From the NCBI RefSeq assembly GCF_008727865.1, contig NZ_VTWU01000001.1, positions 496,001 through 560,000 of the forward strand: a DNA stretch of 64,000 nucleotides. The letters run 5' to 3'. The notes under the pieces were generated by a model. It saw only the letters and a program-made list of their open reading frames with translations. It was not told the origin of the DNA and ran no database searches. Below, one piece after another: positions 36,800-56,956 of this stretch (position 1 is the stretch's first letter; each line of letters begins with the position of its first letter). Source of the DNA: Hymenobacter busanensis. Lineage in GTDB: Bacteria; Bacteroidota; Bacteroidia; Cytophagales; Hymenobacteraceae. The translations under genes were made by a program, and so were the position numbers.

Positions 36800-38677
36800 A
36801 TGACGCTATTTCGTACTCTTCTCCGAGCAGCCTTGCTGCCAGCGCTGTGGCTGCTGGCCTTTTCCAGCCGCGCCGACCACCTGCACGCCCATTTGCTGCT
36901 GGGCGCACAACTAACCGGCGCGCAGGAAGCCCCGGCCGTAAACACGGCCGCCCGTGGTGTGGCCAGCTTCACCTTCAACGAAAACCGCGACACGCTCTTC
37001 GTCACGGCCGCCTTCAACGGCCTGAGCGGGCCCATTACCAATGCCCACGTGCACGAGGGTGCGCGCGGGGTATCGGGCCCGGTCATCACTCCCTTGTTTC
37101 AGTTTGTGAACGGCAACCGCCTGCAGGGTTTTCTGACCGGAGCCGACATCGACAAGGCGAAAATCAGCAAGTACCTGCGCGGCGAGTACTACATCAACGT
37201 GCACACGGCTGCCAACCCGGCGGGCGAAATCCGCGGGCAGATTGAAGTAGAAACCGACGTGGAATATTCTGCCAACATCAACGGCGCGCAAGAAGTACCA
37301 GCCGTGAACACCCAGGCCAGCGGCTACGGCACGTTCAACCTCAGCCAGGACCAAGGCACCATGAAGTTTCGGGTGGTGATGAGCGGCCTGAGTGGCCCCG
37401 CTACCAATGCCCATTTCCACACGGGCGCCGTGGGCGTGTCGGGTCCGGTTATCATCGGGGTGTTTCAGTTTGCCAGCGGCAACCTGATAGAAGGAGAGGT
37501 AGCCACCACACCGGCTTTTCTGACAGCCTTGGCGTCCGGCCAGATCTATTTCAACGTGCATACGGCGGCCAACCCCGGGGGCGAAATTCGCGGGCAAGTG
37601 TTGCCGACTATCCGCGCCGTGGCCCACGATGCCCGTCTGGATGGCAGTCAGATGGTACCGGCCGTGACGACTCCTGCCAAAGGCGTATCGGTACTTCGCC
37701 TGAACACGACCCTGGATACCCTGCGCCTGACGGTGGCGCATACCGGCCTGAGCGGCGCCCCAACCTCGCTGGTGCTGTATGCCGCCGATGCCGGTGTGGC
37801 CAACTCCAGCGCCAATCAGATTGCTTCCGTAACCATTCCGGCCGGTACGCCCAATCCCTTCGGCGTTACTTTCTCAAATGCCACCCCAGCGCTGGTCAAC
37901 CTGTTTTTGCGCGGTGGCGTGAATATGGTGCTGACTACAGCGGCCAACCCCAACGGCGAGTTGCGCGGCCAAGTGTACCGCCTGGCTCGGGAAGGCTACA
38001 CCTTTGCCCTGAACGGTGCCCAGGAAGCGCCCAATCCCACGCCCAGCACCGGCTACGGCGCGGGCTACGTATCCATCGACCGCGACCAAACCAACGCGCA
38101 CTTTGCCATGACCTGGGGCGGCCTGACGGCTACGCCTACCGCCGGCCACTTCCACACCGGCCGCCGCGGGCAGGCTGGCCCAGTCATTTTCAACTTGCTG
38201 CCCTACTTCGCGCCTGCCGGCAGTGGCATTTCGGCCGAAGGTTACTGGCGCAGCACCGATGCCGCGGCGCCTTTCACCCTGCGCCGGTCCCTGCAATTTC
38301 GACAGGACAGCATGTACGTTAATCTGCACACGCCTACGTACCCCGGAGGGGAAGTTCGGGGGCAGGTGTTTCGTGGGGCCCGCAACCTCAGAAGTGTGCT
38401 GGCGGCCCAGCCGGCGGCTGTGCTAGCCGAAACCTTTGCTGCCTATCCCAACCCCGCCACCAACCACGTGCAACTGGAATTCACGAGCCGGGTAACCGCC
38501 TCTGGCACGGTTCAGGTGTTTGATCCGTTGGGAAGAAAAGTGCTGAACGAATCAACTCAGGTGCAACCCGGCAGCAATAAAATAACTCTTGATGTTAGTC
38601 GCCTGAAAAGCGGAATTTATTTTACGGTGGTCAGTGTTTCTGGCACGGACATTGTTGGTAAATTTGCGAAAGAATAG
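36800..38677 (+). CDS. Four-repeat CHRD protein with T9SS sorting signal
   Basis: 625 residues. Signal peptide (LLPALWLLAFSSRA), then four consecutive CHRD domains (about 33-150, 155-272, 275-395, 400-520). Each starts with an L.G.QE.P or L.GSQ.VP motif and ends with YINVHT or FNVHT..NP.GEIRGQ. The third repeat has lost the NVHT histidine (VLTTAANPNGELRGQ). The C-terminal domain (about 545-625) begins YPNPATN and ends GIYFTVVSVSGTDIVGKFAKE-like, a type A T9SS signal. Secreted and surface-bound or released; CHRD function is not known in bacteria. Own transcription unit with a terminator. Confidence 0.9.
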   Translation: MTLFRTLLRAALLPALWLLAFSSRADHLHAHLLLGAQLTGAQEAPAVNTAARGVASFTFNENRDTLFVTAAFNGLSGPITNAHVHEGARGVSGPVITPLFQFVNGNRLQGFLTGADIDKAKISKYLRGEYYINVHTAANPAGEIRGQIEVETDVEYSANINGAQEVPAVNTQASGYGTFNLSQDQGTMKFRVVMSGLSGPATNAHFHTGAVGVSGPVIIGVFQFASGNLIEGEVATTPAFLTALASGQIYFNVHTAANPGGEIRGQVLPTIRAVAHDARLDGSQMVPAVTTPAKGVSVLRLNTTLDTLRLTVAHTGLSGAPTSLVLYAADAGVANSSANQIASVTIPAGTPNPFGVTFSNATPALVNLFLRGGVNMVLTTAANPNGELRGQVYRLAREGYTFALNGAQEAPNPTPSTGYGAGYVSIDRDQTNAHFAMTWGGLTATPTAGHFHTGRRGQAGPVIFNLLPYFAPAGSGISAEGYWRSTDAAAPFTLRRSLQFRQDSMYVNLHTPTYPGGEVRGQVFRGARNLRSVLAAQPAAVLAETFAAYPNPATNHVQLEFTSRVTASGTVQVFDPLGRKVLNESTQVQPGSNKITLDVSRLKSGIYFTVVSVSGTDIVGKFAKE

Positions 38678-38732: not shown

Positions 38733-39165
38733 ATGCCCGTTTATGAGCAGTATGGCCACTTTTTGACCGATAAAACGCACTGTAACTATTAGTCTGTACT
38801 AACGACCCCAAATCAGTACAGACTTTTTGAGGGTAGAAGCGGGGGCCTTGGTTGAAGCTGTGTGGAAAGCTTCTGGTAGTAGGGTTTGTACCAGCATCAC
38901 ACCACGACTGCATTCCAAATACATTGGTTGCTACCAGCCTTGGCTTTTCACACCCCGAGCAAAGAGCGGGAAAAGTGGCTGAATTGCACCGGAATCGGGG
39001 TTTGTGGAAAACTTGCTTCGTGAAGGTTTGCTAATGGTCTTGGCCATCGGGTACCTTCATTCTGTTCTTGGGAAGTGGCTGATTGTCTTGTACATCAACA
39101 TCGTCGACCAAGTGCTTGATGCGCTCAAGAACCTCCCAGTATTATTTTCACCAAAACATACCCCA
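38733..39165 (+). other. Gap of about 430 bases with one more terminator-like hairpin
   Basis: Lower GC than the flanks. At 38791-38824 a perfect 10-pair stem (AGTCTGTACT/AGTACAGACT) with a 14-base loop is followed by TTTTT, so an intrinsic terminator is likely, though no gene ends before it. An open frame from a GTG at 39004 runs into the small gene at 39166 and encodes a plausible hydrophobic segment; I could not decide whether it is translated. Confidence 0.5.
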
Positions 39166-39366
39166 ATGCCCAAAAGCCGTACCCGCAAACCCCGCAAAGC
39201 GAACCACGTCCCCCACGTCTTCAACAAGACAACCATTAACCAGAACATCACCCAGAACATTCACTACAACCAGAATCCACCAGCTGAGAAGAAGTCGTGG
39301 CTGAAAGCCATCGGTGGATTCTTTGGGGCCCTGTTAGCTGGACTGTTAGGAAGCGGCGACCAATAA
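39166..39366 (+). CDS. Small orphan protein with a C-terminal hydrophobic helix
   Basis: 66 residues (or 120 if a GTG at 39004 is used). The N-terminal part is basic (MPKSRTRKPRKANH), the middle is rich in Asn and Gln (NKTTINQNITQNIHYNQN), and the C-terminal part WLKAIGGFFGALLAGLLG could span or insert into a membrane. The longer version would add a second hydrophobic segment (LLMVLAIGYLHSVLG, WLIVLYINIVDQVL). No family recognised. It lies in a lower-GC stretch just before the exonuclease gene. Confidence 0.5.
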   Translation: MPKSRTRKPRKANHVPHVFNKTTINQNITQNIHYNQNPPAEKKSWLKAIGGFFGALLAGLLGSGDQ

Positions 39367-39389: not shown

Positions 39390-40112
39390 TTGACGCCCGA
39401 GTACCTGCTCTTCATCGATACCGAAACGACCGGGCTGCCCAGCCGCTGGGACTTGCCCTACGCCAGCGACGCGGCTCAGTGGCCGTACGTGGCCCAGGTA
39501 GCGTGGCAGGTGTACTCGCCCGAAGGAACACTCATCAAGCAGGAAAACCATTACCTGCACGTGCCCGACGGGGCGATGCGGCCGGCCGCGCTGGCCGTAC
39601 ACGGCTTGACACCCGATTTCCTGCGCCAGTTTGGTCAGGAGCCCAGCATCGTGCTTCGGCAATTGCATCAGGATTTGCTCACGTACCGGCCGCGCGTGGT
39701 GGGTTACTTTCTGCAACTCGATTTTCACGTGCTGGGCGCCGGTTTTCACCGGGCCGGTCTGCCCAACCTGCTGCCAGAGTTGCCGCAATTCTGCGTGATG
39801 CGCGTAACCGAGCGCCCGGTTGATGGCTCCCACCGGCGGTTTCGGCGGCTGGCCGAGCTGTACGAGCAACTCTTTGAGCTGGCCATGCCACAGCTGCACG
39901 ATGCCTGCGAGGATGCCGCCGCCACAGCCCGCTGTTTTTTTGAGCTGCAGCGGCGCGGAAAAATCACGCACTCCGTCCTTACCGGGCAGCCGCCGCTACA
40001 GTTGCCCGGACTGGCTGGGGGTGGCTGGTCGCCGTGGCGGCCGCTGCTGCTGGCGGCCGCGGCGGGGGCATTGGTCTTGCTTCTACTTGCCTTCCTATGG
40101 AAAATCGTTTAG
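39390..40112 (+). CDS. DnaQ-like 3'-5' exonuclease with a C-terminal membrane anchor
   Basis: 240 residues. DEDDh exonuclease core: Exo I FIDTETTG (Asp10, Glu12), Exo II region YFLQLDFHVLG, Exo III HDACEDAAATA. The last 25 residues (LLLAAAAGALVLLLLAFLW) form a transmembrane helix, which is not usual in DnaQ proteins. The start is a TTG at 39390, five bases after a TTTG promoter-like end; no nearby ATG precedes the Exo I motif. Its 3' end overlaps the next gene by 16 bases. DUF294 proteins and DnaQ-like exonucleases are also paired in acetate-uptake loci of Proteobacteria (family knowledge), but the nuclease substrate is unknown. Confidence 0.83.
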   Translation: MTPEYLLFIDTETTGLPSRWDLPYASDAAQWPYVAQVAWQVYSPEGTLIKQENHYLHVPDGAMRPAALAVHGLTPDFLRQFGQEPSIVLRQLHQDLLTYRPRVVGYFLQLDFHVLGAGFHRAGLPNLLPELPQFCVMRVTERPVDGSHRRFRRLAELYEQLFELAMPQLHDACEDAAATARCFFELQRRGKITHSVLTGQPPLQLPGLAGGGWSPWRPLLLAAAAGALVLLLLAFLWKIV

Positions 40113-42004
40113 CCTTTCTGCGTACCGTGGCACCCTTCACGGTGCTGCCCGATGAGGTGCTGGCCGGGGTGGTGGACCTGTTGCAGGAAGTCACCTACCC
40201 GAAAGAAACCTTGCTCTACCAGCAGGATATCAGCAAGCTGCGTTACCTGGACATTATTGTCGAGGGGGCCTATGATACCTTTTTCTACGACAGCGAGCAG
40301 CGCAAGCGCCTGCCCGAAGAATACGGCGCGGGCCTCTGCTACGGCGGCATGTCCATCTTGCTGAACAAGAAACGCTCGTTGCGCACGGTGGTGGCGCGCA
40401 AAGGCACCCGCGTACTCCAGCTGCCCCGCCGCGACTTTCGGGCCTTGTGCCTCTCCTCGGAAGCTTTTTTCCAGTACTTCACCCACAAATACGGCCAGCG
40501 CATGCTCGACGACGAGTATGCGCATTTTGTGAAGCCCGCCAACCCGCCCGAGGCCAATTTCCTGGTGGCCGACCAGCTGTATTCGCGCCGCGTCGAGTCG
40601 CTGGAGGAGCGTGCCATTGTGGCCTGCCCGGCTGATACGCCCATTTTTGAGGCCGCCCGGCGCATGGCCGAGGCGAAAGTCAGCTGCTTGTTTGTGACGG
40701 CACCGCAGGCCGATTCCATCATCGGCTACTGCACCGACATTACCCTGCGCGACTCCGTTGTTGCCCAGTGCCTCGACGCAACCCGGCCCGTGGGCGACGT
40801 GGTGGCTACGCCCGTGCTCAGCATTCAGAGCGAGGCCTTTGTGTACGAGGCCATTCTGCTCATGTTCCAGACCAAAACGCGCTACCTGCTGGTGGAGCGC
40901 AACGGCCGCTACGTGGGCTTTTTGAGCCGCAATAAGCTGCTGAGCGACCTGGCGCAGTCGCCGTTCATGTTCATTCAGGCCGTGAAGCTGGCCCAGAGCA
41001 CCCGCGAGTTGAAGCGCCGCTGGGACATGGTGCCCGACATCGTGAACCAGTTGCTCACCCGCGGCGTGCGGCCCGAAATCGTCAATCAGGTCATTACCAC
41101 CGTGGCCGACACCATTGCCCAAAAGGTAATCGAGCGGGCTTTGGAAGCGCACGGGCCGGCACCGGCGCGCTTCGTATTTGTGGTGCTGGGCAGCGAAGGC
41201 CGTAAGGAGCAGACCCTAGTGACGGACCAAGACAACGCCATCATTTACGAGGACAAGGCCAACGAGCAGCGCGAACTGGTGCGGGCGTACTTTCTGCGCT
41301 TCGCCGAAGCTGTGTCGGATGAGTTGAACCACATTGGGCTGCATTTCTGCACGGGCGGGTTCATGGCCAAAAATCCCAAGTGGACGCACTCCCTCTCGTA
41401 CTGGAAACGCCAGTACCGCGAGTGGATGAGCAACTCCAACGCCGAAACGGTGATGCAGATGTCGACCTTTTTCGACTGCCGCGCCCTATACGGCGACTTT
41501 GGTCTGATGGACGAGTTGCGCGCTTTTCTGCACGAAGAGCTGAGCCAGCCGCTGGACCGCTTTCTGTTTTACATGGCCAAGAATGCGCTGCAGTACGAGC
41601 CGCCGCTCACCACGTTTTTCCGCAGCTTTCGCACTTTCAGCCAGGAAGGTCAGCAGGTGTTCGACCTCAAGAAAACCATGACGCCCATCGTGGACCTGGT
41701 GCGTGTGTACGCCCTGCAACACCAGATTTTCAGCACCAACACCGGCGAGCGGCTGGCGTTGCTGCGCGAGCGGGGCGTGTTTCGCGACCAGGAATACCAC
41801 GAACTGTTGCAGGCCTACTACTACCTCATGGGCATGCGCCTCAAGAAGCAAGCCCGCCAGCTCATCGACGACCGCCGCACCGCCACCAACTACCTCGACC
41901 CCAAGAGCCTAACCCAGGTTGAGCAAGTCACGCTCAAGGAAATTTTCAAGGTTATTACCGATTTTCAGTTGAAAATAAAGGTGAATTTCACGAAAACGCT
42001 ATAA
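40097..42004 (+). CDS. cNMP-binding / CBS / DUF294 nucleotidyltransferase-like protein
   Basis: 635 residues with, in order, a cyclic-nucleotide-binding-like domain (about 10-140), two CBS repeats (about 175-295), a GlnD-like nucleotidyltransferase domain (about 340-480) with VVLGSEGRKEQTLVTDQDNAIIY, and the DUF294 C-terminal helical domain. The GS..R.EQ...TDQDNA motif keeps the metal-binding acids. Such proteins are thought to be signalling nucleotidyltransferases that sense nucleotides through CBS or cNMP domains. ATG 40097 lies inside the exonuclease gene, so the two are translationally coupled. Confidence 0.9.
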   Translation: MENRLAFLRTVAPFTVLPDEVLAGVVDLLQEVTYPKETLLYQQDISKLRYLDIIVEGAYDTFFYDSEQRKRLPEEYGAGLCYGGMSILLNKKRSLRTVVARKGTRVLQLPRRDFRALCLSSEAFFQYFTHKYGQRMLDDEYAHFVKPANPPEANFLVADQLYSRRVESLEERAIVACPADTPIFEAARRMAEAKVSCLFVTAPQADSIIGYCTDITLRDSVVAQCLDATRPVGDVVATPVLSIQSEAFVYEAILLMFQTKTRYLLVERNGRYVGFLSRNKLLSDLAQSPFMFIQAVKLAQSTRELKRRWDMVPDIVNQLLTRGVRPEIVNQVITTVADTIAQKVIERALEAHGPAPARFVFVVLGSEGRKEQTLVTDQDNAIIYEDKANEQRELVRAYFLRFAEAVSDELNHIGLHFCTGGFMAKNPKWTHSLSYWKRQYREWMSNSNAETVMQMSTFFDCRALYGDFGLMDELRAFLHEELSQPLDRFLFYMAKNALQYEPPLTTFFRSFRTFSQEGQQVFDLKKTMTPIVDLVRVYALQHQIFSTNTGERLALLRERGVFRDQEYHELLQAYYYLMGMRLKKQARQLIDDRRTATNYLDPKSLTQVEQVTLKEIFKVITDFQLKIKVNFTKTL

Positions 42005-42407: not shown

Positions 42408-45197
42408 ATGACCTTGCTTCGCGGAATAAACGTAGCGGCCAGTTTTCTAATTGCCATCTGTCTGGTTCTGTTGGGCGTCGCGGACGCTAGTGGGGCAACT
42501 CAGCCCGCCCCGAGCGTACAGGCACGCACCATCGTACTGCCGAAAGGCGCCCACGCCCGCCTGAGATACGGCGCCGAGCGGCTGCGCGAGGCCCTGCAAC
42601 GCGCCGGCAGCCCGGCCACCATCACCGAGCAGGACCAGCTCAGCGGCAAGAAAGACCTGATTGTCGTGGGCCGCGCCGCCGATGCGCTGCTGCAGCAAGC
42701 CGCCACCGCCTTCCACGCCCAGGCCGATAAGATGCCCGGCAAGGAAGGCTTTGCCGTTACCAGCGGCGACAACAACACCATCGTCATCAGCGGCACCGAC
42801 AACTCCGGCGCCCTCTACGGCTGCCTGGAACTGGCCGAACGGGTGCAGGGGGCTAAGGAGGGTTACGTCCGCAACCTCCGGCTCACCGACCAGCCCGAAA
42901 TGGTGATGCGCGGGGCCTGCATCGGGGTGCAGAAACCCACCTACCTGCCGGGGCGCCAGGTGTACGAGTACCCCTACACGCCCGAAACGTTTCCGTGGTT
43001 TTACGACAAGCAGCTCTGGGTGCGCTACCTCGACATGCTCGTCGACAACCGCATGAACTCGCTCTACCTCTGGAACGGCCACCCCTTCGCCTCGCTGGTG
43101 CGGCTGAAGGAGTATCCGTACGCGGTGGAAGTCGATGAGGCCACGTTTAAGAAGAACGAGGAAATGTTCCGCTTCCTCACCGAGGAGGCCGACAAGCGCG
43201 GCATCTGGGTGATTCAGATGTTCTACAACATCATCGTCTCCAAGCCCTTTGCCGAGCACCACGGCATCAAAACCCAGGACCGCAACCGGCCCATCACCCC
43301 GCTCATTGCCGACTACACCCGCAAGTCCATTGCCGCCTTCGTGGAGAAGTACCCCCACGTGGGGCTGATGGTGGCCCTGGGCGAAGCCATGGAAGGCGTG
43401 GGTCAGGACGACGTGGACTGGTTTACGAAGACCATCATTCCCGGCGTGCAGGACGGCCTGAAAGCCCTCGGCCAGACCGAGCTGCCGCCCATCGTGCTGC
43501 GCGCCCACGACACCGACGCGCCGCGCGTTATCAGCGCGGCCTTGCCCCTGTACCAGAACCTCTACACCGAGGCCAAATTCAACGGCGAGGCGCTGACGAC
43601 CTACACCCCGCGCGGCTCCTGGGCCGAGCTGCACCGCAAGCTGAGCAGCATGAACTCGGTGCACATCCAGAACGTGCACATCCTGGCCAACCTGGAGCCC
43701 TTCCGTTACGGCTCGGCCGATTTCATCCAGAAATCGGTGCAGGCCATGCACCACATCTACGGCTCGAACGGGCTGCACCTCTACCCGGAGTCCTCGTACT
43801 GGGACTGGCCCTACACGGCCGACAAGGTGGAGCCGCGGCAGCTGCAAATCGACCGGGACTGGCTCTGGTACAAGGAGTGGGCCCGCTACGCCTGGAAAGC
43901 CGACCGCCCGCGCCAAGGCGAAATCGACTACTGGGGCCAGCAGCTGGGCCAGCAGTTTGGCGGCACGGCCGAAACCGGCAAGCACGTGCTCGAAGCCTAC
44001 GAAGCGGCCGGCGAAATCGAGCCCAAGCTGCTGCGCCGCTACGGCATCACCGACGGCAACCGGCAGACGCTCACGCTGGGCATGCTGATGACCCAGCTCA
44101 TCAACCCGCGCCGCTACGGGCTGTTCACGCTCCTGTATGAGTCGGAAGCCCCGGAGGGCGAAATGATTATCGACTACGCCGAGAAGGAAGCCAAAGGCCA
44201 GCCGCACATCGGGGAAACCCCGCCGCAGGTGGCCGACGAAGTGGTGGCCCACGGCAAAGCGGCGGTGGCGGCCATTGAGCGGGCCGCAGCGGGCGTGACG
44301 CAGAACCAGGCCGAGTTTGCCCGGGTGAAAAACGACATGTACTGCCAGGACGCGCTGGCCAACTTCTACGCCGACAAGGTGCGCGCCGCTTTGCAGGTGC
44401 TGCGCTACAAGTACAGCCATAACGTGGCCGACCTGGAAGCTGCCATGCCCCTGCTGGCCCGCAGCGTGCAGCACTGGGAGCGGATGGTGGCCCTGACCAA
44501 GGACTCGTACCTCTACGCCAACAGCATGCAGACCGCCCAGCGCAAAATTCCGATGCGCGGCGTCGACGGCACCTACAAAACCTGGGTGGAGATGCTGCCG
44601 GTGTACCAGCGCGAGCTGGCCAACCTGCGCCACAACCTCGACTCGCTCAAGCAGGTGCGCCTGCTGCCCGCCAGCCAGAAAACGGCCCGCCTGACCCCGG
44701 CCGCCGTGACACTGCTGAGCAAGGCGCAGACCTACACGGTGGGTGTGGGCCAGACGGTTTTCGCCGATACCACCGCCCAGCTCACGGCCGTGGCGCCGGA
44801 GCTGCAGGGGCTGAAGGGCATCCGCCTCGGCAAGGCGCAGATGCAGAACCAGCGGACGGAATTGCGCTTCAGCACGAAGCAGCCGGTGAAGCTGCTAGTG
44901 GGCTATTTTAACGCCAAGAACCCGCGCTACCTGCCCGTGCCGACCCTGGAAATCGACGCCACGGCCAACGACTACGGCCAGGCCGATATCAAAATCAGCA
45001 ACGCCGCCACGGTGACCGGCCTGCCCACGGTAAACGTGCACACCTACAGCTTCAAGCCCGGCACCCACACCCTGAACCTGGGCAAGGGCACGGCGCTGCT
45101 GCTGGGCTTCGTGCCGGCCGAGGAGCCCATCCGCATCTACAACGCCGGCCTGGGCGTGACCAACAAGGACGGGGAGCTGGACTGGCTGTTTGAGTAA
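42408..45197 (+). CDS. Large secreted glycoside hydrolase-like protein (GH67 N-domain type)
   Basis: 929 residues with a signal peptide (ASFLIAICLVLLGVADASG). Residues about 35-150 look like the alpha-glucuronidase/hexosaminidase N-terminal domain (LPKGAHARLRYGAERLREAL, GTDNSGALYGCLELAE). It is followed by a TIM-barrel-like part with MLVDNRMNSLYLWNGHPFASL, VGLMVALGEAMEG and LHLYPESSYWDWPY, and a long helical plus beta-sandwich C terminus. Acidic residues in GEAMEG and YPESSYWDW are candidate catalytic sites. A precise GH family and substrate cannot be given; it is the first gene of the locus. Confidence 0.7.
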   Translation: MTLLRGINVAASFLIAICLVLLGVADASGATQPAPSVQARTIVLPKGAHARLRYGAERLREALQRAGSPATITEQDQLSGKKDLIVVGRAADALLQQAATAFHAQADKMPGKEGFAVTSGDNNTIVISGTDNSGALYGCLELAERVQGAKEGYVRNLRLTDQPEMVMRGACIGVQKPTYLPGRQVYEYPYTPETFPWFYDKQLWVRYLDMLVDNRMNSLYLWNGHPFASLVRLKEYPYAVEVDEATFKKNEEMFRFLTEEADKRGIWVIQMFYNIIVSKPFAEHHGIKTQDRNRPITPLIADYTRKSIAAFVEKYPHVGLMVALGEAMEGVGQDDVDWFTKTIIPGVQDGLKALGQTELPPIVLRAHDTDAPRVISAALPLYQNLYTEAKFNGEALTTYTPRGSWAELHRKLSSMNSVHIQNVHILANLEPFRYGSADFIQKSVQAMHHIYGSNGLHLYPESSYWDWPYTADKVEPRQLQIDRDWLWYKEWARYAWKADRPRQGEIDYWGQQLGQQFGGTAETGKHVLEAYEAAGEIEPKLLRRYGITDGNRQTLTLGMLMTQLINPRRYGLFTLLYESEAPEGEMIIDYAEKEAKGQPHIGETPPQVADEVVAHGKAAVAAIERAAAGVTQNQAEFARVKNDMYCQDALANFYADKVRAALQVLRYKYSHNVADLEAAMPLLARSVQHWERMVALTKDSYLYANSMQTAQRKIPMRGVDGTYKTWVEMLPVYQRELANLRHNLDSLKQVRLLPASQKTARLTPAAVTLLSKAQTYTVGVGQTVFADTTAQLTAVAPELQGLKGIRLGKAQMQNQRTELRFSTKQPVKLLVGYFNAKNPRYLPVPTLEIDATANDYGQADIKISNAATVTGLPTVNVHTYSFKPGTHTLNLGKGTALLLGFVPAEEPIRIYNAGLGVTNKDGELDWLFE

Positions 45198-45200
45198 TTG

Positions 45201-45283
45201 AGTGACAGGTGACAAGTAACACGTGACAGGTTGTTGCCTCTGCGTCTTCTGCGGTTCTTCCGCGTCCTCTGCGGGCTAAAGTC
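45201..45283 (+). repeat. Intergenic simple-repeat element (copy 1)
   Basis: Degenerate GTGACAAGTAACA-type units, then CCTCTGCGTCTTCTGCGG...CCTCTGCGGGCTAAAGTCG. The second half is shared with 48701-48738; both lie just upstream of a gene of the same locus. Confidence 0.6.
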
Positions 45284-45324
45284 GTCCGCGCCGCCTTCCC
45301 GCTTCTGAATCCGAATCCACCCGC

Positions 45325-46884
45325 ATGACCATAACCATTCGCCCCACCGCGCTTCTGCTTTCCCTCGGTTTGCTGACCAGCACCGCCGTCAGCGCCCAAA
45401 CCGGCTTCGTGCTCAGCGACGCTACGCTGCGCGCCGACGTGGCCCGCTTCAACGCGCTGGATAAGGAGGACGTGATAAACCTGGTGCCCAACGCCCAAGC
45501 CGCCGACTGGCTCAGCCAGCAGGTGCCCCGCTTCGAGTGCCCCGATTCGGCCCTGCAGCACACCTACTACTACCGCTGGTGGTGCATGCGCAAGCACCTC
45601 AAGCAGACGCCCGACGGCTACGTGTTCACCGAGTTCATCACCCCGATGAAGCACGCGGGCACCCACAACACCATCAGCAGCGCCCTCGGCCACCACCTGT
45701 ACGAAGGCCGCTGGCTGCGCGACCCGCAGTACATCGAGCAGTACACCAAGTTCTGGCTGTACGTGGACGCCAAGCGCACGGCTCCGAAGCTGCACGGCTT
45801 CAGCAGCTGGCTGCAGGACGCGGTGTGGAGCCTGTACCTGGTCAACCAGAACCAGCCGCTGGTGCAAGAGCTGCTGCCGGCGCTGAATACCGACTACCGG
45901 CTCTGGGAAAAGGAGCGGATGCTGCCCAACAAGCTGTTCTGGCAGTACGACGTGAAGGACGCCATGGAGGAATCCATCAGCGGGGGGCGCAAGGTGAAAA
46001 ACGTGCGCCCGACCATCAACAGCTACATGTACGGCAACGCCAAGGCCCTGACGGCAATGGCGAAGCTGACCAAAAATGATACCCTGGCGAGCAAGTACGC
46101 CGCCAAGGCCAAGCAGCTGCGCGCCGACGTGCAGCGGGTGCTCTGGGACGACCAGGACGCGTTTTTCAAGGTGCAGTACGAGAAGGGCGGCCTTTGCGAG
46201 TGGCGCGAGGAGCTGGGCTACATCCCCTGGTACTTCTCGCTGCCCGCCGACAAGGCCAAGTACGCCAAGCAGTGGGAGCAGCTCACCGACGAGGGTGGTT
46301 TCAAAGCCCCCTGGGGCCTGACCACGGCCGAGCGCCGCGCCCCCGGCTTCCGCACCCACGGCTCGGGCCACGGCTGCGAGTGGGACGGGGCGGTGTGGCC
46401 CTACGCCACCACCCAGACGCTGAAAGGCCTGGCCAACCTGCTCACCGAATACAAGCACCAGGACGGGATGAGCAGGCAGGTGTACTACGACGAGCTGCGC
46501 AAATACGCCCTCTCGCACCGCAAAAACGGCCAGCCCTACCTCGGCGAGTACCAGGACGAAAAGACCGGCGAGTGGCTCAAGGGCGACAACCCGCGCAGTA
46601 GCTACTACAATCACTCCGGCTTCGCCGACCTCATCATCACCGGCCTCGTGGGCCTCAAGCCCCGCACCGACAACGTGGTGGAGCTTCAGCCGCTGGTGCC
46701 CGAAGGCCAGTGGGACTACTTCTGCCTCGACGAGTTGCGCTACCACGGCCGCACGCTCACCGTCATCTGGGACAAAACCGGCCAGAAATACGGCAAAGGC
46801 CCGGGCCTGCGCATCTTCGCCGACGGCAAGGAAATCGGGCGGACGGGTAAGCTGACGCGCCTGACGGCCAAGCTGCCGGGGTAG
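45325..46884 (+). CDS. Secreted MGH1-like six-hairpin glycosidase
   Basis: 519 residues with a signal peptide (LLLSLGLLTSTAVSAQ). The body is an (alpha/alpha)6 barrel of the MGH1/GH63-GH37-like clan: YYYRWWCMRKHL, HGFSSWLQDAVWSLY, RPTINSYMYGNAKAL, GYIPWYFSLP, GHGCEWDGAVWPYAT and SYYNHSGFADLIITGL. Asp and Glu residues in these segments are the likely catalytic pair. Usual members cleave alpha-linked sugars. A short beta C-terminal region (FADGKEIGRTG) closes the chain. The second enzyme of the locus, 127 bases after the first. Confidence 0.8.
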   Translation: MTITIRPTALLLSLGLLTSTAVSAQTGFVLSDATLRADVARFNALDKEDVINLVPNAQAADWLSQQVPRFECPDSALQHTYYYRWWCMRKHLKQTPDGYVFTEFITPMKHAGTHNTISSALGHHLYEGRWLRDPQYIEQYTKFWLYVDAKRTAPKLHGFSSWLQDAVWSLYLVNQNQPLVQELLPALNTDYRLWEKERMLPNKLFWQYDVKDAMEESISGGRKVKNVRPTINSYMYGNAKALTAMAKLTKNDTLASKYAAKAKQLRADVQRVLWDDQDAFFKVQYEKGGLCEWREELGYIPWYFSLPADKAKYAKQWEQLTDEGGFKAPWGLTTAERRAPGFRTHGSGHGCEWDGAVWPYATTQTLKGLANLLTEYKHQDGMSRQVYYDELRKYALSHRKNGQPYLGEYQDEKTGEWLKGDNPRSSYYNHSGFADLIITGLVGLKPRTDNVVELQPLVPEGQWDYFCLDELRYHGRTLTVIWDKTGQKYGKGPGLRIFADGKEIGRTGKLTRLTAKLPG

Positions 46885-46904
46885 TACAGGACGGAAACCC
46901 AGAA

Positions 46905-47013
46905 CGTCATGTCGAGCTTGTCGAGACATCTCGCGTGCTGACTTCAAGTAGTAATCAACCTGACGAGTGGTTTTACTTACCCAGCGAGATGTCTCGACAA
47001 GCTCGACATGACG
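46905..47013. repeat. 30-base perfect inverted repeat
   Basis: The left arm (46905-46934, core ATGTCGAGCTTGTCGAGACA) is the exact reverse complement of the right arm (46984-47013), with a 49-base spacer. Each arm also holds inner symmetry (TCGAGCTTGTCGA). It lies between the MGH1-like and GH28 genes; transcribed, it forms a long hairpin just before the GH28 start. Confidence 0.85.
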
Positions 47014-47036
47014 GCCATTTTGCATTGACTCTCACC

Positions 47037-48695
47037 ATGAATCATACTTCTCTCGCCACCCTCCGCCGCCTCAGCTGCGCCTTGCTGCTGTTGCTGCTTG
47101 GCGCCTCGGCCGCCCAGGCCCAGCAGTCCTACAACGTGCTCAAGTACGGCGCCCGCAACGACAGCACCAGGCTCAGCACCGAGGCCATCCGGAAGGCTAT
47201 TGCGGCGGCCAGCAAGGCGGGCGGGGGCACGGTGTACTTCCCCGCCGGCAAGTACCGCACCGGGGCTATTCACCTGAAAAGCAACATTACCATCGACCTT
47301 GACGCCGGGGCCATCCTCTACTTCAGCGACAATTTCGACGACTACCTGCCCATGGTGCCGACGCGCTACGAGGGCATCGACATTACCAGCTTCTCACCGC
47401 TGTTTTACGCCTACAAGGCCGAGAATATCACGATTAAGGGCCGGGGCATCATCGATGGGCAGGGCAAGAAATGGTGGGATTTTGCGGAGGGCAAGTCCAG
47501 GGCCAGCCAGGACTCGAAGTGGCAGCAGGAGTTTTTCCGGCTCAACAAGGACATTCTGAAGCCCGATCTGCCGGGCGTGATTGAGCGCGGCTTCATGCGC
47601 CCGCCTTTCATCCAGCCGATGTACTGCCGGAACGTCCGCATCGAGGGCATTACCATCCGCAACTCCCCGTTCTGGACCGTCAACCCCGAGTTCTGCGACA
47701 ACGTGACGGTGACGAGCGTGACCATCCTGAACCCCAAGTCGCCGAACACCGACGGGATTAACCCCGAGTCCTGCCGCAACGTGCACATTTCCGACTGCCA
47801 CATCAGCGTCGGCGACGACTGCATCACCATCAAATCGGGCAAGGACCGGGCGGGGCGGCAAATGAACGTGCCGGCTGAGAATTACACCATCACCAACTGC
47901 ACCATGCTCAGCGGGCACGGCGGGGTGGTTATCGGGAGCGAAATGTCGGGCGGGGTGAAGAAGATTACCATCTCCAACTGCGTCTTCGATGGCACCGACC
48001 GGGGCATCCGCATCAAGACGGCCCGGGGGCGCGGGGGCGTGGTGGAGGATATTCGCGTCGATAACGTGGTGATGAAGAACATCCGGGAGCAGATGATTGT
48101 GCTGGACATGCAGTACGCCAACACGCCCGCCGAGCCGGTGACGGAGCGCACCCCGCGCTTCCGCAACATTCACTTCAGCAACATCACGGCCGAGGGCAAC
48201 CAGGCCGGCTTGCTCAACGGGCTGAGCGAAATGCCCATCGAAAACGTCACGTTCTCGAATCTGAACCTCGACGCCAAGCAGGGCTTCACCGTACGCGAAG
48301 CCCGCAACGTGGCCTTCCACAACGTGCAGGTAAACACCCAGATCGGCCCCGCGGTGCGCGCCGAAAACGCCCAGCAGCTGCGCCTCGACGGCCTGCGCGG
48401 CACGGTGCCCGCCGGTGCCCCGCTCGTGGAGCTAGGCAACGTGACGGATGCTTTCGTGACCAACTGCTTCCCCGCCGCCGGCCTCGACACTTTCCTCAAG
48501 CTGAAAGGTGCCGACACCCGTGGCATCGTGCTGCAGAACAACTACCTGAAAGCGGTGAAAACGCCGATTGCCAAGGGCGAGGAAGTAAAGCAGCCAATAG
48601 AAATTACCGCCGCCGAAGTGCCCGCCATGGTGCCCGAACGCAGTGGTACTACGACTCCCAGTCGTAATACCATTATCGTCGAACGACGCCGCTAG
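47037..48695 (+). CDS. Secreted GH28 family polygalacturonase-like enzyme
   Basis: 552 residues with a signal peptide (SCALLLLLLGASAAQAQ). Right-handed parallel beta-helix. Catalytic motifs: NTDGI (about 239-243), VGDDCITIKSG (about 259-269) and SGHGGVVIGSE, plus RIKTARGRGG. The typical YNVLKYGARNDS and ILYFSDNFDDYLPMVPTR segments are found in exo-acting Bacteroidetes GH28 proteins acting on pectic galacturonan or rhamnogalacturonan. ATG 47037 begins the signal; the frame upstream runs through the repeat. Third enzyme of the locus. Confidence 0.92.
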   Translation: MNHTSLATLRRLSCALLLLLLGASAAQAQQSYNVLKYGARNDSTRLSTEAIRKAIAAASKAGGGTVYFPAGKYRTGAIHLKSNITIDLDAGAILYFSDNFDDYLPMVPTRYEGIDITSFSPLFYAYKAENITIKGRGIIDGQGKKWWDFAEGKSRASQDSKWQQEFFRLNKDILKPDLPGVIERGFMRPPFIQPMYCRNVRIEGITIRNSPFWTVNPEFCDNVTVTSVTILNPKSPNTDGINPESCRNVHISDCHISVGDDCITIKSGKDRAGRQMNVPAENYTITNCTMLSGHGGVVIGSEMSGGVKKITISNCVFDGTDRGIRIKTARGRGGVVEDIRVDNVVMKNIREQMIVLDMQYANTPAEPVTERTPRFRNIHFSNITAEGNQAGLLNGLSEMPIENVTFSNLNLDAKQGFTVREARNVAFHNVQVNTQIGPAVRAENAQQLRLDGLRGTVPAGAPLVELGNVTDAFVTNCFPAAGLDTFLKLKGADTRGIVLQNNYLKAVKTPIAKGEEVKQPIEITAAEVPAMVPERSGTTTPSRNTIIVERRR

Positions 48696-48700
48696 CACGT

Positions 48701-48738
48701 CCTCTGCGTCCTCCGCGCCCTCTGCGGGCTATAACTCG
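48701..48738 (+). repeat. Intergenic simple-repeat element (copy 2)
   Basis: CCTCTGCGTCCTCCGCGCCCTCTGCGGGCTATAACTCG; near-identical to the second half of 45201-45283. It ends 11 bases before the GH95 ATG. Confidence 0.6.
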
Positions 48739-48748
48739 TCTGCCCCGA

Positions 48749-51559: not shown

Positions 51560-51640
51560 CGACGGGCGTCCGCGCCGTAAGCGTCGTGGCGCTCAGCAGC
51601 CAGCTCGGCCCGCACCGTGCTACATTCCTTTCCTCCACCA

Positions 51641-54600: not shown

Positions 54601-55210
54601 CGATGCCCGGCAGAGCAGCCGGCCGGCCTGGCTGCAAGACTACGAGGACACCAAGACCACGCTCGACATCAACGCGCCGGGCGTCCGGCAGATGCGCGTG
54701 TACCGCCGCCGCTTTGCGGCCGGCGCCACCGTCACGCCCGGCCCCGATGCGCCCGGCCTGCTGCCCAGTTTCGTGGCCGTGGCCCGCACCAGCAGCATCG
54801 AGCCCGCCTACGACCTAAAAGCCACCACCGGCTACAAGCCCGCCACGGCCCGGCTCAGCGGCCCCGGCCTGACGCGCGAAACCGTCAACGGCAAGGAAAG
54901 CGTGACCTACAAGGAAGCCGGCGCCGCCGCCGTGGAGTGGACCATCCAGACCGGTGTGGCCGACGTGTACTCGCTCACCGTGCGCTACGCCAACCCGCTC
55001 AGCCGCCCGCTCGCCGGCAAGCTCACGGTGTCGGCCGCCGACGGCACGCTTCTGCGCGAGGAAACGGTGGAATTCGTGCCCTCCAAGCCCGGCAAGTGGA
55101 ATTACCTGGCTTCCTCCACCGGCACCATGATCAATGCCGGTAGCTACCGCATCAAGCTCACGGCTACCGACGCGGCCGGGCTGAGCGTGTCGGGCCTGGA
55201 CGTGCAGTAA
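51641..55210 (+). CDS. GH2 family beta-glycosidase with malectin domain
   Basis: 1189 residues. Signal peptide (LLPLLLLLLTATGVCAQ). GH2 sugar-binding domain (about 60-200), Ig-like domain (about 205-310), TIM barrel (about 330-620) with acid/base Glu in VVLWGLENES and nucleophile Glu in VLIGEYGAW. A later malectin-like domain (about 725-900; VNCGGPEYVDQHG, WRLFDVAINGQTVL) and a C-terminal beta-sandwich (about 1080-1189) follow. It is likely a beta-galactosidase or beta-glucuronidase of the locus; the specificity is not clear from sequence. The ATG at 51641 sets a proper signal; a GTG at 51617 is less likely. Confidence 0.9.
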   Translation: MPSPVLARLLPLLLLLLTATGVCAQTALRTELPLLAGWRSVADDKNQQAHRGFERPEFDDKAWQPVALPHNWDAYEGYRRQRHGNRHGYAWYRKTFTAPAPGREQRSFLYFEGVGSYATVWLNGRPVGSHAGGRTTFTLDVTEALRTDGKPNLLAVRADHPAGIQDLPWVCGGCSEERGFSEGSQPLGIFRPVTLVTTSATRIQPFGVHIWADSTLTAQAARLSVTTELKNYGPKPRTLTVRQQLLDRQGRVVAEVSAKQKLASGAAAELRQQLPQLNQPQLWSLADPYLYRLVTRVSAGKQAVDELTTPYGIRWISWPIGKAAAAGQKQFLLNGKPVFINGIAEYEHLLGQSHAFTPEQIRTRVGQMKAAGFNAFRDAHQPHNLRYQANWDSLGWLWWPQMAAHVWYDTPAFRQNFKTLLVEWVKERRNSPSVVLWGLENESTLPADFARECSALIRQLDPTASRERKITTCNGGQGTDWDVPQNWTGTYGGDPNLYGADVERQVLIGEYGAWRTLDLHRTGPPAINSGPYSEDRFAQLMQLKVRLAESAKDRTAGHFFWLLTSHDNPGRVQGGEGQRELDRIGPVNYKGLLTPWEEPTDAFYMFRSHYAPKATEPMVYLASHTWPDRFLTPGRQDSLIVYSNCDEVELFNDVDAASLGRKKRGAFGTHFQWDAVDVRYNVLQAVGYVAGKPVARDLIVLHHLPKSPKFDQLLAEAKPLTAPQPGLNYLYRVNCGGPEYVDQHGSRWAADQPRTSPGTAGSASWTEDFPGLAPFFASQRRTFDPIRGTRDWPLFQTFRYGRDKLRYHFPVPDGEYQVELYFVEPWLGTGGGMDCRGWRLFDVAINGQTVLKDLDLWREAGHDGALKKTVKARVTGGELVVSFPSVASGQALISAIAVATADANAEPAPTTPAVIGGVLLNEPEEGEWSAESWLDTGVRPYNDAATLSNLPSALYGAEWLQRPRRPLKSQAVVSLPLTSAADVYVAVDARQSSRPAWLQDYEDTKTTLDINAPGVRQMRVYRRRFAAGATVTPGPDAPGLLPSFVAVARTSSIEPAYDLKATTGYKPATARLSGPGLTRETVNGKESVTYKEAGAAAVEWTIQTGVADVYSLTVRYANPLSRPLAGKLTVSAADGTLLREETVEFVPSKPGKWNYLASSTGTMINAGSYRIKLTATDAAGLSVSGLDVQ

Positions 55211-55286
55211 GGCCGGGCAGTCAAGGCAAGCCAAGATTCTACAATAGGAGGGGAAAATCATACACGGACGCGGGGGCGGGCGGGGG

Positions 55287-55357: not shown

Positions 55358-56956
55358 ATGAGCAATTTGCGAGTTCTTGACCTGGTCATTATTGCCCTCT
55401 ACCTCGTGGGGATGGTGGCCGTGGGAGTGTACTTCTCCCGCCGAAACGTGAACCCCGAGCAGTATTCCAGCGCGTCGGGGCAGATTCCGGGCTGGGCTAT
55501 CGGGCTGTCCATCTACGCCACGTTCCTAAGCAGCAATACCTTTCTGGGCGTGCCGGGCAAGGCATTCGGCACCAACTGGAACGCCTTCGTCTTCAGTCTT
55601 TCCATGCCGCTGGCGGCTTGGGTAGGAGCCCGATACTTTGTGCCATTTTACCGTAGCACCGGCGAAATTTCCGCTTACACCCACCTGGAGCACCGCTTCG
55701 GCAGCTGGGCGCGCACCTACGCCGTGGTGTGCTTTCTGCTCACGCAGCTGGCCCGCATTGGCTCCATCTTTTTCGGCATTGCCCTCACCTTGCAGGCCCT
55801 CACGGGCTTGTCGATGGAAATGATCATGCTCGTCACCGGCGTGTGCATCATCGTCTACACCGTGCTGGGCGGCATCGAGGCCGTTATCTGGACGGAAGTG
55901 GTGCAAGGCGTCATCAAAACCTTCGGCGCGCTGCTGATTCTCTACCTCATCGTCGACAACATGCCCGGCGGTTTGGCCAAGGTGATGGAAGTAGGGCAGC
56001 AGCACGACAAGTTCAGCCTCGGCGGTTTTGCACCCGATTTCACCCAGTCGACCTTTTGGGTGGTGCTGCTCTACGGCTTCTTTATTAACCTCAACAACTT
56101 CGGCGTCGACCAGAACTACGTGCAGCGCTACCACACGGCGGCTTCGGCCAAGCAGGCGGCCAAGTCCATTTGGCTGTGCGTGTGGCTGTACGTGCCAGCG
56201 TCGCTGCTCTTTTTCGTCATCGGCTCGGCCTTGTTTGCCTACTACCAGGTGCACCCCGAACTGATAGAGGCCGTGAAGCTGAAAGTGGCCGCCGAAAAGC
56301 TGCCGCTCACCGCTACTGCCGCCCAAATCAGCCAGACGGCTGCCCAGCTCGTGCCGGCCGACTACGGCGACAAGGTGATGCCGCATTTCATGGTTACCAA
56401 GATTCCCTCGGGCTTTGTGGGGCTCATTGTCTCGGCCATTTTGTCGGCGGCCATGAGCACCATTAGCTCGGGCATGAACGCCTCGGCCACCGTTTTCACG
56501 GCCGATATCTACGAGCGGTACTTCCACAAAGCCAAGCTCAGCGGCCGCCAGATGCTGCGGGCCCTGCACCTGGGCACCGTGGTGGTGGGGCTGTTGGGCA
56601 TGGGCACCGGCATTGCCATGATTGGCGTGAAAAGCGTGCTGGACGTATGGTGGGAACTGTCGGGCATTTTCGCGGCCGGCATGCTGGGCTTGTTCCTGCT
56701 CGGCGTCATCAGCCGGCAGACCGGCAACGCCGAAGCATTAACCGCTACCGCCATCGGCGTGCTGGTGATTCTGTGGATGACGTTTTCGAGCAAGCTGCCG
56801 GAGGGCCTCGCCGCCTTCCGCAACCCGCTTCACAAAAGCATGATCATCGTCGTGGGTACGCTCACGATTTTCCTGGTTGGGCTGCTGCTGGCCCGGCTGC
56901 GCCGCAACGGGGCCTTGCAAGAGGCTCTGGAGCCGGCCAAACATTCCGTGTACTAG
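55358..56956 (+). CDS. Sodium/solute symporter (SSS family)
   Basis: 532 residues, about 13-14 helices. SSS landmarks: SLSMPLAAWVGARYFVPFYR, GGIEAVIWTEVVQGVIK (TM5-6 region), and ILSAAMSTISSGMNASATVFTADIYERYF (the sodium-binding TM8 Ser/Thr region). Imports a sugar or sugar acid with sodium across the inner membrane. Followed by a DapA-family gene, so its substrate may be a sugar acid released by the locus enzymes. Confidence 0.92.
   Translation: MSNLRVLDLVIIALYLVGMVAVGVYFSRRNVNPEQYSSASGQIPGWAIGLSIYATFLSSNTFLGVPGKAFGTNWNAFVFSLSMPLAAWVGARYFVPFYRSTGEISAYTHLEHRFGSWARTYAVVCFLLTQLARIGSIFFGIALTLQALTGLSMEMIMLVTGVCIIVYTVLGGIEAVIWTEVVQGVIKTFGALLILYLIVDNMPGGLAKVMEVGQQHDKFSLGGFAPDFTQSTFWVVLLYGFFINLNNFGVDQNYVQRYHTAASAKQAAKSIWLCVWLYVPASLLFFVIGSALFAYYQVHPELIEAVKLKVAAEKLPLTATAAQISQTAAQLVPADYGDKVMPHFMVTKIPSGFVGLIVSAILSAAMSTISSGMNASATVFTADIYERYFHKAKLSGRQMLRALHLGTVVVGLLGMGTGIAMIGVKSVLDVWWELSGIFAAGMLGLFLLGVISRQTGNAEALTATAIGVLVILWMTFSSKLPEGLAAFRNPLHKSMIIVVGTLTIFLVGLLLARLRRNGALQEALEPAKHSVY

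What the first reader, a model, noticed from the sequence alone, without database searches (positions are those of the whole stretch)
39390..42004. Membrane-tethered DnaQ nuclease overlapping a cNMP/CBS/nucleotidyltransferase gene
Seen: a 16-base overlap, full DEDDh motifs, and a C-terminal membrane helix on the exonuclease; the partner has a ligand-binding cNMP fold, CBS pair and an intact TDQDN motif. Established: exonuclease and DUF294 proteins pair in acetate-uptake loci, without a clear mechanism. Inference: a two-part sensor in which one makes and the other trims a nucleotide or nucleic-acid signal at the membrane.
Basis: partly seen in the sequence, partly recalled or inferred. Interest (0 to 1): 0.52.

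Follow-up and report, generated by a model that had tools for sequence, protein, structure and literature searches.

The report
Membrane-anchored exonuclease paired with sensor nucleotidyltransferase
Two overlapping bacterial genes, a membrane-anchored nuclease and a sensor-controlled enzyme shaped like protein-tagging enzymes, form a stable partnership that often sits beside sugar uptake genes, and they may be the off-and-on switch of a nutrient transporter.

Summary
A 240-aa DEDDh exonuclease with a C-terminal membrane helix overlaps by 16 bases a 635-aa cNMP-CBS-DUF294-DUF294_C protein, in a Hymenobacter genome. The pair is a genuine unit: 40 of 44 full-length named relatives have the exonuclease next door, and in 395 Bacteroidota genomes both occur in the same 6. 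The helix is usual (32 of 42) but was lost several times. First, this exonuclease is a different lineage from the partner in acetate loci, and its recurrent neighbours are L-arabinose genes (araB-araD-araA-sodium symporter-exonuclease-DUF294, a shared LacI regulator and operator); in the window itself neither ara genes nor the operator were found. Second, the DUF294 half folds like the protein adenylyltransferases GlnE and SidM, with their G-X11-D-X-D motif. In classical loci a sodium symporter also stands directly upstream (5 of 8 examined), and published P. putida genetics shows that loss of the exonuclease, not of the DUF294 protein, mimics loss of the symporter on pyruvate. I propose that DUF294 tags and silences a symporter or sugar enzyme and the membrane exonuclease removes the tag. 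Pairing is shown; the chemistry is inferred.

The parts
39390..40112 (+). DEDDh (DnaQ/RNase T-fold) 3'-5' exonuclease, 240 aa, TTG start, predicted tail-anchored
39417..39425 (+). Exo I motif D10-x-E12
   Evidence: invariant 22/22, 42/42
39720..39722 (+). Exo II aspartate D111
39897..39914 (+). Exo III motif H170...D175
40035..40106 (+). C-terminal transmembrane helix, residues 216-239, one residue before the end
   Evidence: AlphaFold helix, pLDDT 95-97; hydropathy
40097..40112 (+). 16-base overlap of the two genes; overlaps of 4, 7, 8, 16, 17 or 25 bases in 25 of the 40 full-length named relatives that have the adjacent exonuclease
40097..42004 (+). cNMP-CBS-DUF294-DUF294_C protein, 635 aa, GlnE/SidM-type nucleotidyltransferase fold
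40097..40522 (+). cyclic-nucleotide-binding-type fold, residues 1-142
   Evidence: Z 18.4, 140 residues aligned
40586..40954 (+). CBS pair, about residues 164-286
41030..41440 (+). DUF294 nucleotidyltransferase domain, residues 312-448
41189..41233 (+). G365-S-X10-D377-Q-D379, the G-X11-D-X-D motif of nucleotidyltransferase-fold AMPylators
41558..41983 (+). DUF294_C helical domain, residues 488-629
55358..56956 (+). context only: sodium:solute symporter (SSF/SSS family) in the glycoside-hydrolase cluster downstream of the pair; link to the pair unproven

Best explanation
The pair is a membrane-sited regulatory unit for carbon-source uptake. The cNMP and CBS domains of the DUF294 protein read metabolic state and control a GlnE/SidM-type nucleotidyltransferase that attaches a nucleotide monophosphate to a target protein, most likely a sodium:solute symporter or an enzyme of the sugar pathway fed by it, and lowers its activity. 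The tail-anchored DEDDh exonuclease, held at the inner membrane where that target is, removes the nucleotide and restores activity. In this Bacteroidota branch the unit most often serves L-arabinose and related plant sugars. Shown here: pairing, intact catalytic residues, predicted helix, GlnE-like predicted fold, neighbourhoods. Inferred: that the modification is on a protein, which protein it is, and that the exonuclease is the eraser.
For: Pairing: 22 of 24 family loci have the exonuclease directly upstream, a 23rd has it 10 kb away; 40 of 44 full-length named relatives; in 36 family genomes 23 have both, 1 DUF294 only, 0 exonuclease only, 12 neither; in a 395-genome phylum sample the same 6 genomes have both. 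Fold: best structural matches over the catalytic half are GlnE N-terminal domain (Z 26.6, 319 residues), GlnE C-terminal domain (Z 24.6) and SidM/DrrA (Z 23.3) (Foldseek); motif G-X11-D-X-D. Membrane: helix in 32 of 42; in the classical lineage 5 of 17 partner exonucleases examined carry two N-terminal helices instead. Symporter link: SSS symporter directly upstream of the pair in Chryseobacterium/Epilithonimonas, Rufibacter hautae, Adhaeribacter, H. gummosus (SSF confirmed by Pfam in C. lathyri) and in 5 of 8 classical loci examined. Arabinose link: ara genes near the pair in 11 of 42 named loci with the exonuclease (AraA confirmed by Pfam); shared LacI regulator and operator; AraR-type regulator beside DUF294 in C. 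lathyri. Genetics (PMC9927547, sections 7 and 8 read): in P. putida loss of the exonuclease pp_0353 slows growth on pyruvate, as does loss of the symporter actP-I, while loss of the DUF294 protein pp_0354 does not: what an off-writer and on-eraser would give. Precedent: RNase Z, a nuclease, removes AMP from proteins (PMC12663964, abstract and sections 4, 7).
Against: No activity was measured; a DEDDh enzyme acting on nucleotidylated protein is not known to me. A GlnE-type fold does not show the substrate. The P. putida authors speculate on mRNA degradation. In the window the pair is neither beside ara genes nor preceded by the operator. Mucilaginibacter, Pedobacter and Pararcticibacter pairs show no ara or symporter neighbours. 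araA co-occurrence in the family is not specific: xylose isomerase has the same 25 of 36 distribution. Cyclobacteriaceae keep the DUF294 protein without this exonuclease (20 of 20 loci in the tree), so an eraser is not always needed. The P. putida exonuclease was not in my trees; the P. aeruginosa partner, from the other lineage, was.
Confidence: 0.38

Rival explanations
1. RNA control at the membrane: the exonuclease trims or degrades transcripts of transporters and sugar enzymes near the inner membrane, and the nucleotidyltransferase protects or marks RNA 3' ends by adding nucleotides.
For: Closest solved folds of the exonuclease are DnaQ, RNase T, TREX and ExoI, nucleic-acid enzymes; the P. 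putida authors speculate on mRNA degradation; the polymerase-beta-type fold includes RNA tailing enzymes (recalled).
Against: The DUF294 half matches protein adenylyltransferases GlnE and SidM best; no RNA-binding domain was seen by Pfam in either protein.
Confidence: 0.22
2. Second-messenger unit: DUF294 makes a small nucleotide or oligonucleotide signal and the exonuclease degrades it.
For: Synthase-and-hydrolase pairs are common; DEDDh enzymes include dinucleotide hydrolases (recalled).
Against: No structural match to a messenger synthase among the 50 rows shown in each (absence there excludes nothing); no receptor gene recurs in the conserved neighbourhoods.
Confidence: 0.12
3. Same system as the acetate pair of Proteobacteria, merely with genes swapped.
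For: Same domain set in the DUF294 protein; DUF294-exonuclease pairs beside acetate symporters.
Against: Exonuclease partners fall in two groups parted by SH-aLRT 100, this one with Bacteroidota DnaE-fused proofreading domains; gene order reversed; arabinose genes are the recurring neighbours.
Confidence: 0.1
4. Toxin-antitoxin or defence module of HEPN/MNT kind (nucleotidyltransferase plus nuclease, overlapping genes).
For: MntA uses the same motif to AMPylate a nuclease (PMC7641770, abstract start and passage); DUF294_C is grouped with HEPN-like domains (PMC3710099, passage).
Against: Mostly one copy per genome and steady inheritance in a clade; sugar-locus context; only a generic DEDDh model and PDC-S48 (26 bits) match the exonuclease in PADLOC and nothing matches the DUF294 protein.
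Confidence: 0.05
5. Co-transcribed neighbours without a joint function.
For: DUF294 persists alone in Cyclobacteriaceae.
Against: Exclusive co-occurrence in 395 genomes and pairing of DUF294 with two separate exonuclease lineages.
Confidence: 0.06

Closest known systems
pp_0354/pp_0353 operon of Pseudomonas putida (MxtR/ErdR = CrbS/R regulon) and its kin beside actP-yjcH
   Same: cNMP/CBS/DUF294 protein plus RNase_T-type exonuclease in one operon, linked to an SSS symporter and to carbon-source use (PMC9927547, PMC5715377 passages)
   Different: order DUF294 then exonuclease; another exonuclease lineage, without a predicted helix in P. aeruginosa, Methylocella, Microvirga and Vibrio; acetate/pyruvate instead of arabinose
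GlnE, glutamine synthetase adenylyltransferase
   Same: fold of catalytic plus helical domain (Z 26.6 and 24.6), G-X11-D-X-D motif
   Different: one catalytic unit instead of two, cNMP and CBS sensors instead of a nitrogen-responsive regulatory domain, a separate nuclease partner; GlnE reverses itself
RNase Z as deAMPylase of SelO substrates (PMC12663964)
   Same: a nuclease that removes AMP from proteins: precedent for the proposed eraser
   Different: metallo-beta-lactamase fold, not DEDDh; writer is a pseudokinase
HEPN/MNT two-gene modules
   Same: nucleotidyltransferase and nuclease in a two-gene module
   Different: nuclease is a DEDDh exonuclease; metabolic neighbourhood
Bacteroides L-arabinose regulon (AraR, NrtR family; PMC4666351)
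   Same: an AraR_C/NrtR regulator stands beside the pair in Chryseobacterium lathyri
   Different: the paper's main text does not contain 'CBS'; Hymenobacter has a LacI-type regulator at its ara operon

Membership tests
DEDDh exonucleases | D-x-E, D, H-x4-D catalytic residues | tested here: met
   22/22 and 42/42
DEDDh exonucleases | DnaQ/RNase T fold | tested here: met
   Foldseek E 5e-10 to 2e-8, DnaQ, RNase T, TREX
DEDDh exonucleases | 3'-5' exonuclease activity | not testable with these tools
   no assay
Tail-anchored membrane proteins | single C-terminal helix with only a few residues after it | tested here: met
   helix 216-239 of 240; 0-6 residues after the 17-residue core in 32 of 32 helix-bearing named homologues
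Tail-anchored membrane proteins | insertion into the inner membrane, catalytic side in the cytoplasm | not testable with these tools
   prediction only
GlnE/SidM-type protein adenylyltransferases | fold of nucleotidyltransferase plus helical domain | tested here: met
   Z 26.6 / 24.6 / 23.3, on a model of mean pLDDT 76
GlnE/SidM-type protein adenylyltransferases | G-X11-D-X-D motif | tested here: met
   G365, D377, D379 in 64 of 64; motif as quoted
GlnE/SidM-type protein adenylyltransferases | detectable sequence relation to GlnE | tested here: inconclusive
   profile search of PDB sequences gave CBS and CNB chains among the 60 rows shown of 85; a cNMP-less relative (L035) matches Pfam GlnE at 21.3 bits, under the cut-off of 24
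GlnE/SidM-type protein adenylyltransferases | transfer of NMP to protein | not testable with these tools
   no assay
cAMP/cGMP receptors | phosphate-binding cassette glutamate (recalled) | tested here: not met
   Gly 43, Ala 1 of 44 full-length proteins; register from the alignment to PKA regulatory subunit
Acetate-locus DUF294/exonuclease pairs | exonuclease of the same lineage | tested here: not met
   classical 16 rows versus 29 others, SH-aLRT 100; 10 versus 29, 100/100
Acetate-locus DUF294/exonuclease pairs | acs, actP, DUF485 neighbours | tested here: inconclusive
   recurring neighbours are ara genes, an SSS symporter and LacI; acs and DUF485 were not searched for by family
L-arabinose regulon | physical linkage to ara genes or shared operator | tested here: inconclusive
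   met in many relatives, not met in the window genome: ara operon on another contig, no operator in the window
HEPN/MNT toxin-antitoxin | separate HEPN RNase as partner | tested here: not met
   the partner is RNase_T/DEDDh

The most novel reading that the evidence does not exclude
A DEDDh exonuclease has become a dedicated, membrane-anchored eraser of protein nucleotidylation: with a sensor-gated GlnE-like writer it forms a reversible switch on SSS/SLC5-family sodium symporters and their pathways, and this writer-eraser partnership arose with two separate exonuclease lineages, both of which gained membrane anchors, at opposite ends.
Probability: 0.22. Interest if true: 0.85.

Novelty: new variant of a known kind. 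Interest (0 to 1): 0.6.

Why it matters
DUF294/exonuclease pairs are widespread and unexplained. This branch gives a different substrate setting (arabinose rather than acetate), so what the branches share, an SSS symporter beside the pair, stands out as the likely target. It turns a vague association into one cheap genetic test (a double deletion in P. putida) and one biochemical test (does the exonuclease remove NMP from a protein?). A DEDDh enzyme acting on proteins would be new to my knowledge, and reversible nucleotidylation of a nutrient transporter would add a layer to bacterial carbon control.

Tried and rejected
Co-occurrence with araA as proof of an arabinose role: in 36 family genomes araA is in 24 of 24 pair-bearing (DUF294-bearing) and 1 of 12 other genomes, but xylose isomerase has exactly the same distribution and UxaC nearly so, 24 of 24 and 3 of 12. 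I count this as a saccharolytic-lifestyle signal only. Outside the family: araA 18 of 18 and xylA 17 of 18 in genomes with the exonuclease, again unspecific; genomes without it have araA in 9 of 18 and xylA in 18 of 18 (L147, cut by its contig end, not counted).

LacI 'either at ara or at the pair': first thought complementary. The genome-wide search showed that G011 and G032 have the ara-type LacI 20-23 kb from araA and a different LacI near the pair; I kept only the tree result (quick tree), one supported clade mixing 9 pair-adjacent and 6 ara-adjacent regulators; 6 other LacI near pairs and a second LacI near the window genome's ara operon fall outside it.

Operator in the window: none; best score just upstream of the exonuclease is -3.0 against 20-28 for the sites used to make the matrix. 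The closest relatives L099, L100, L101, L138 lack it too. Ten of the 38 scanned Hymenobacter-type loci were ara loci picked by me, so the count of sites shows that the motif is not chance, not how common it is genome-wide.

Rows left out: from the named set of 80 loci, 16 more distant DUF294 proteins (L159, L160, L164-L177) were not counted in the 44 full-length or 20 short groups; L131, L147, L165, L168 were left out of the DUF294 tree as cut or partial; L131 and L147 were scored as without exonuclease although for L147 the contig begins inside the gene; L048 was dropped from the second exonuclease tree for its long branch. Named and unnamed sets overlap (contig lengths show L100=G003, L101=G006, L115=G027, L138=G001), so they are not added together.

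The two exonuclease trees disagree on details inside the Bacteroidota group (DnaE-fused domains basal, sister); only the split from classical partners is steady. Long branches remain.

No match of the DUF294 half to solved sequences beyond CBS and CNB among the 60 rows shown. NCBIfam gave only weak matches far under cut-off. PADLOC gave a generic DEDDh model with a CRISPR-associated label and a weak candidate; not taken as defence. Paper searches: DUF294+exonuclease 0 papers; DUF294 15 papers; acetate-locus terms 2 papers; arabinose/CBS/nucleotidyltransferase terms nothing relevant; so 'no paper on this pair in sugar loci' rests on those searches of one library. Papers: PMC9927547 sections 7, 8 and passages; PMC5715377, PMC3710099, PMC12409994, PMC7641770, PMC7698356, PMC4666351 passages (and listings) only; PMC12663964 outline with abstract, and sections 4, 7. 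No preprints or subscription journals were searchable.
Full report
WHAT IS THERE. In the window the exonuclease frame runs 39390-40112 (TTG start) and the DUF294 frame 40097-42004; they share 16 bases. Pfam finds RNase_T in the first and cNMP_binding, two CBS, DUF294 and DUF294_C in the second. The window belongs to a Hymenobacter: the closest named relative is H. gummosus (85% identity over 633 columns). The genome has one DUF294 match.

CATALYTIC RESIDUES AND HELIX. D10, E12, D111, H170, D175 of the exonuclease are invariant in 22 of 22 family sequences and 42 of 42 named ones. The AlphaFold model (mean pLDDT 87.7) has a DnaQ/RNase T core and a helix at 216-239 of 240 residues. Tails with a 17-residue mean hydropathy of 1.6 or more occur in 32 of 42 named homologues and in 48 of 840 shuffles; in the family set 20 of 22 adjacent exonucleases have a hydrophobic tail. 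The tail sequences vary widely while staying hydrophobic. Ten of 42 lack it: five Weeksellaceae, four Sphingobacterium, H. polaris. One further family genome (G020) has the helix cut by a single in-frame stop codon. On the DUF294 tree the helix is present in the earliest-branching pair (L130) and needs about three losses (quick tree).

THE PAIR IS A UNIT. Of 36 genomes of the own family, 24 carry a DUF294 protein of 62% identity or more; 22 of these have the exonuclease directly upstream, one has it about 10 kb away and without helix, and one (G030) lacks it but has a second, classical DUF294-exonuclease pair elsewhere. No genome of the 36 has this exonuclease type (over 300 bits) without the DUF294 gene. 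Among 80 named loci, 40 of 44 full-length DUF294 genes have it; of 20 that lack the cNMP domain, 2 do. In 395 Bacteroidota genomes the full-length DUF294 type (above 1000 bits) and this exonuclease type are found in the same 6 genomes and nowhere else.

TWO EXONUCLEASE LINEAGES. DUF294 proteins of other bacteria have the exonuclease downstream (for example L026, L028, L044, L046, L048, L052). A tree parts 10 such partners from the 29 rows holding this type and the exonuclease domains fused to Bacteroidota DnaE (the DnaE naming rests on frame lengths near 1400 aa and is recalled) with support 100/100; adding P. aeruginosa, Methylocella, Microvirga, Vibrio, Cytobacillus and Rhizobium partners keeps the split (SH-aLRT 100). 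So DUF294 has partnered with two separate exonuclease lines; separate recruitment is the simplest reading, subject to wider sampling. Of 17 classical partners examined, 5 (four delta-proteobacterial-type genomes and Rhizobium) carry two N-terminal membrane helices: anchoring at the other end of the protein.

NEIGHBOURHOOD. In seven of 21 family loci examined the pair closes an operon araB-araD-araA-(SSS sugar symporter, six of seven)-exonuclease-DUF294. AraA is confirmed by Pfam; AraB and AraD are named by me from their sequences (Pfam: FGGY kinase, Aldolase_II), the symporter is Pfam SSF. Among 42 named loci with the exonuclease, 11 have ara genes within the 10 kb fetched: Rufibacter, Adhaeribacter, H. 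perfusus, Chryseobacterium, Epilithonimonas, and two Sphingobacterium on the other strand. In C. lathyri the locus reads alpha-L-arabinofuranosidase, araB, araD, araA, aldose epimerase, symporter, exonuclease, DUF294, then a divergent AraR_C/NrtR regulator and a GH127 beta-L-arabinofuranosidase. One araA per about 5 Mb genome would put ara genes within 10 kb by chance in well under one of 42 loci (my estimate; the loci are not independent). In 8 of 42 named loci, all Hymenobacter, and in G020, a LacI-type gene lies just upstream, and these nine regulators fall in one clade (SH-aLRT 100) with six that sit at the ara operons of other Hymenobacter-like genomes. A palindrome ACACAANNNNTTGTGT occurs 14 times exactly and 12 times with one change in 742 kb of Hymenobacter-type loci (0.5 expected from a first-order Markov resampling) and once in 1.12 Mb of other loci; it stands upstream of 6 of 10 ara loci scanned and upstream of seven LacI-exonuclease-DUF294 or exonuclease-DUF294 units (assignment to genes by position, mine). 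These are candidate operators, not tested ones.

LIMITS OF THE ARABINOSE LINK. In the window genome araA lies on another contig, in an operon aldose epimerase-araB-araD-araA-SSS-LacI that carries the palindrome, while no site is found in the 64 kb window. Mucilaginibacter, Pedobacter and Pararcticibacter pairs stand alone. The pair's presence tracks araA in the family but equally tracks xylose isomerase. I therefore claim a recurrent tie to plant-sugar use, arabinose most often, not an exclusive one. In the window the pair is followed by a GH28, GH95, GH2, MGH1-like cluster that contains an SSF symporter 13 kb on.

COMMON DENOMINATOR. In classical loci on plasmids I looked at 8 of 52 matching records: an SSS symporter stands directly upstream of DUF294 in Paracoccus, P. 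aeruginosa, Methylocella, Microvirga (all DUF485-acetate symporter) and Rhizobium (DUF4212-symporter); two Vibrio have kduD-kdgR instead, Cytobacillus neither. Acetate and arabinose pathways share little chemistry; a sodium:solute symporter next to the pair is what they share.

FOLD AND MECHANISM. The DUF294 model (mean pLDDT 76.2) aligns best with GlnE N-terminal (Z 26.6, 3.1 A over 319 residues) and C-terminal (Z 24.6) domains and SidM/DrrA (Z 23.3), all acting on proteins as writers or, for the GlnE N-terminal domain, as eraser of AMP. The motif GSEGRKEQTLVTDQDN has G-X11-D-X-D spacing, the signature quoted for AMPylators. The cNMP domain lacks the usual glutamate (Gly 43, Ala 1 of 44), so cAMP itself is doubtful as ligand. 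Published genetics: in P. putida removal of the exonuclease, or of ActP-I, slows growth on pyruvate; removal of the DUF294 protein does not (PMC9927547). The authors speculate on mRNA degradation and call the role unclear. If DUF294 silences the symporter and the exonuclease reverses this, loss of the eraser copies loss of the symporter and loss of the writer is silent, as seen. A DEDDh enzyme cleaves the phosphodiester on the 5' side of a terminal nucleotide with free 3'-OH, which is also the bond in protein-O-NMP (established chemistry, recalled; its application to protein is my inference). RNase Z shows that a nuclease can be a deAMPylase (PMC12663964).

VERDICT. The membrane-tethered pair is a conserved, distinct variant of a known but unexplained kind. 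The acetate frame does not fit this branch; a sugar-uptake frame does. The writer-eraser mechanism is my best guess (0.38), with one simple genetic test.

Noticed in passing
L008 (G020) about 1461-1500; G020:C1:3756296-3756994: A single in-frame TAA interrupts the C-terminal helix of an otherwise intact exonuclease; a hydrophobic stretch follows in frame. Recent loss of the anchor or an assembly error.
   Followed up: partly
L038-L041, L043 (unnamed family f35, Bacteroidota): DUF294 domains in proteins of about 970 aa; L038 (the only one run through Pfam) is sCache_2-PAS-CBS-DUF294: a periplasmic small-molecule sensor joined to the GlnE-like nucleotidyltransferase.
   Followed up: no
L209 and L213 (Vibrio plasmids): DUF294-exonuclease pair directly after kduD-kdgR, in L213 near oligogalacturonate porin and alginate lyase genes: a sugar-acid setting for the classical pair.
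   Followed up: no
L164, L171, L172, L176, L210: Classical partner exonucleases of 560-780 aa with two N-terminal membrane helices (a weak PAS match in L172): convergent membrane anchoring.
   Followed up: partly
L035-L037, L142-L158 (Cyclobacteriaceae): DUF294 proteins that lost both the cNMP domain and the exonuclease gene; Algoriphagus also lacks araA (0 of 9) while Cyclobacterium, Belliella and Mongoliibacter keep it (6 of 6).
   Followed up: partly
window 39004-39366: Small frame of 120 aa just upstream of the exonuclease, with no Pfam match and no tblastn relative in the loci held; gene or not is open.
   Followed up: partly
window 42408-56956: Plant-polysaccharide cluster: GH-like protein, MGH1-like GH, GH28, GH95, GH2-malectin, SSF symporter, all on the + strand after the pair.
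   Followed up: partly
window 36800-38677: Protein with four CHRD domains and a Por secretion-type C-terminal sorting domain.
   Followed up: no
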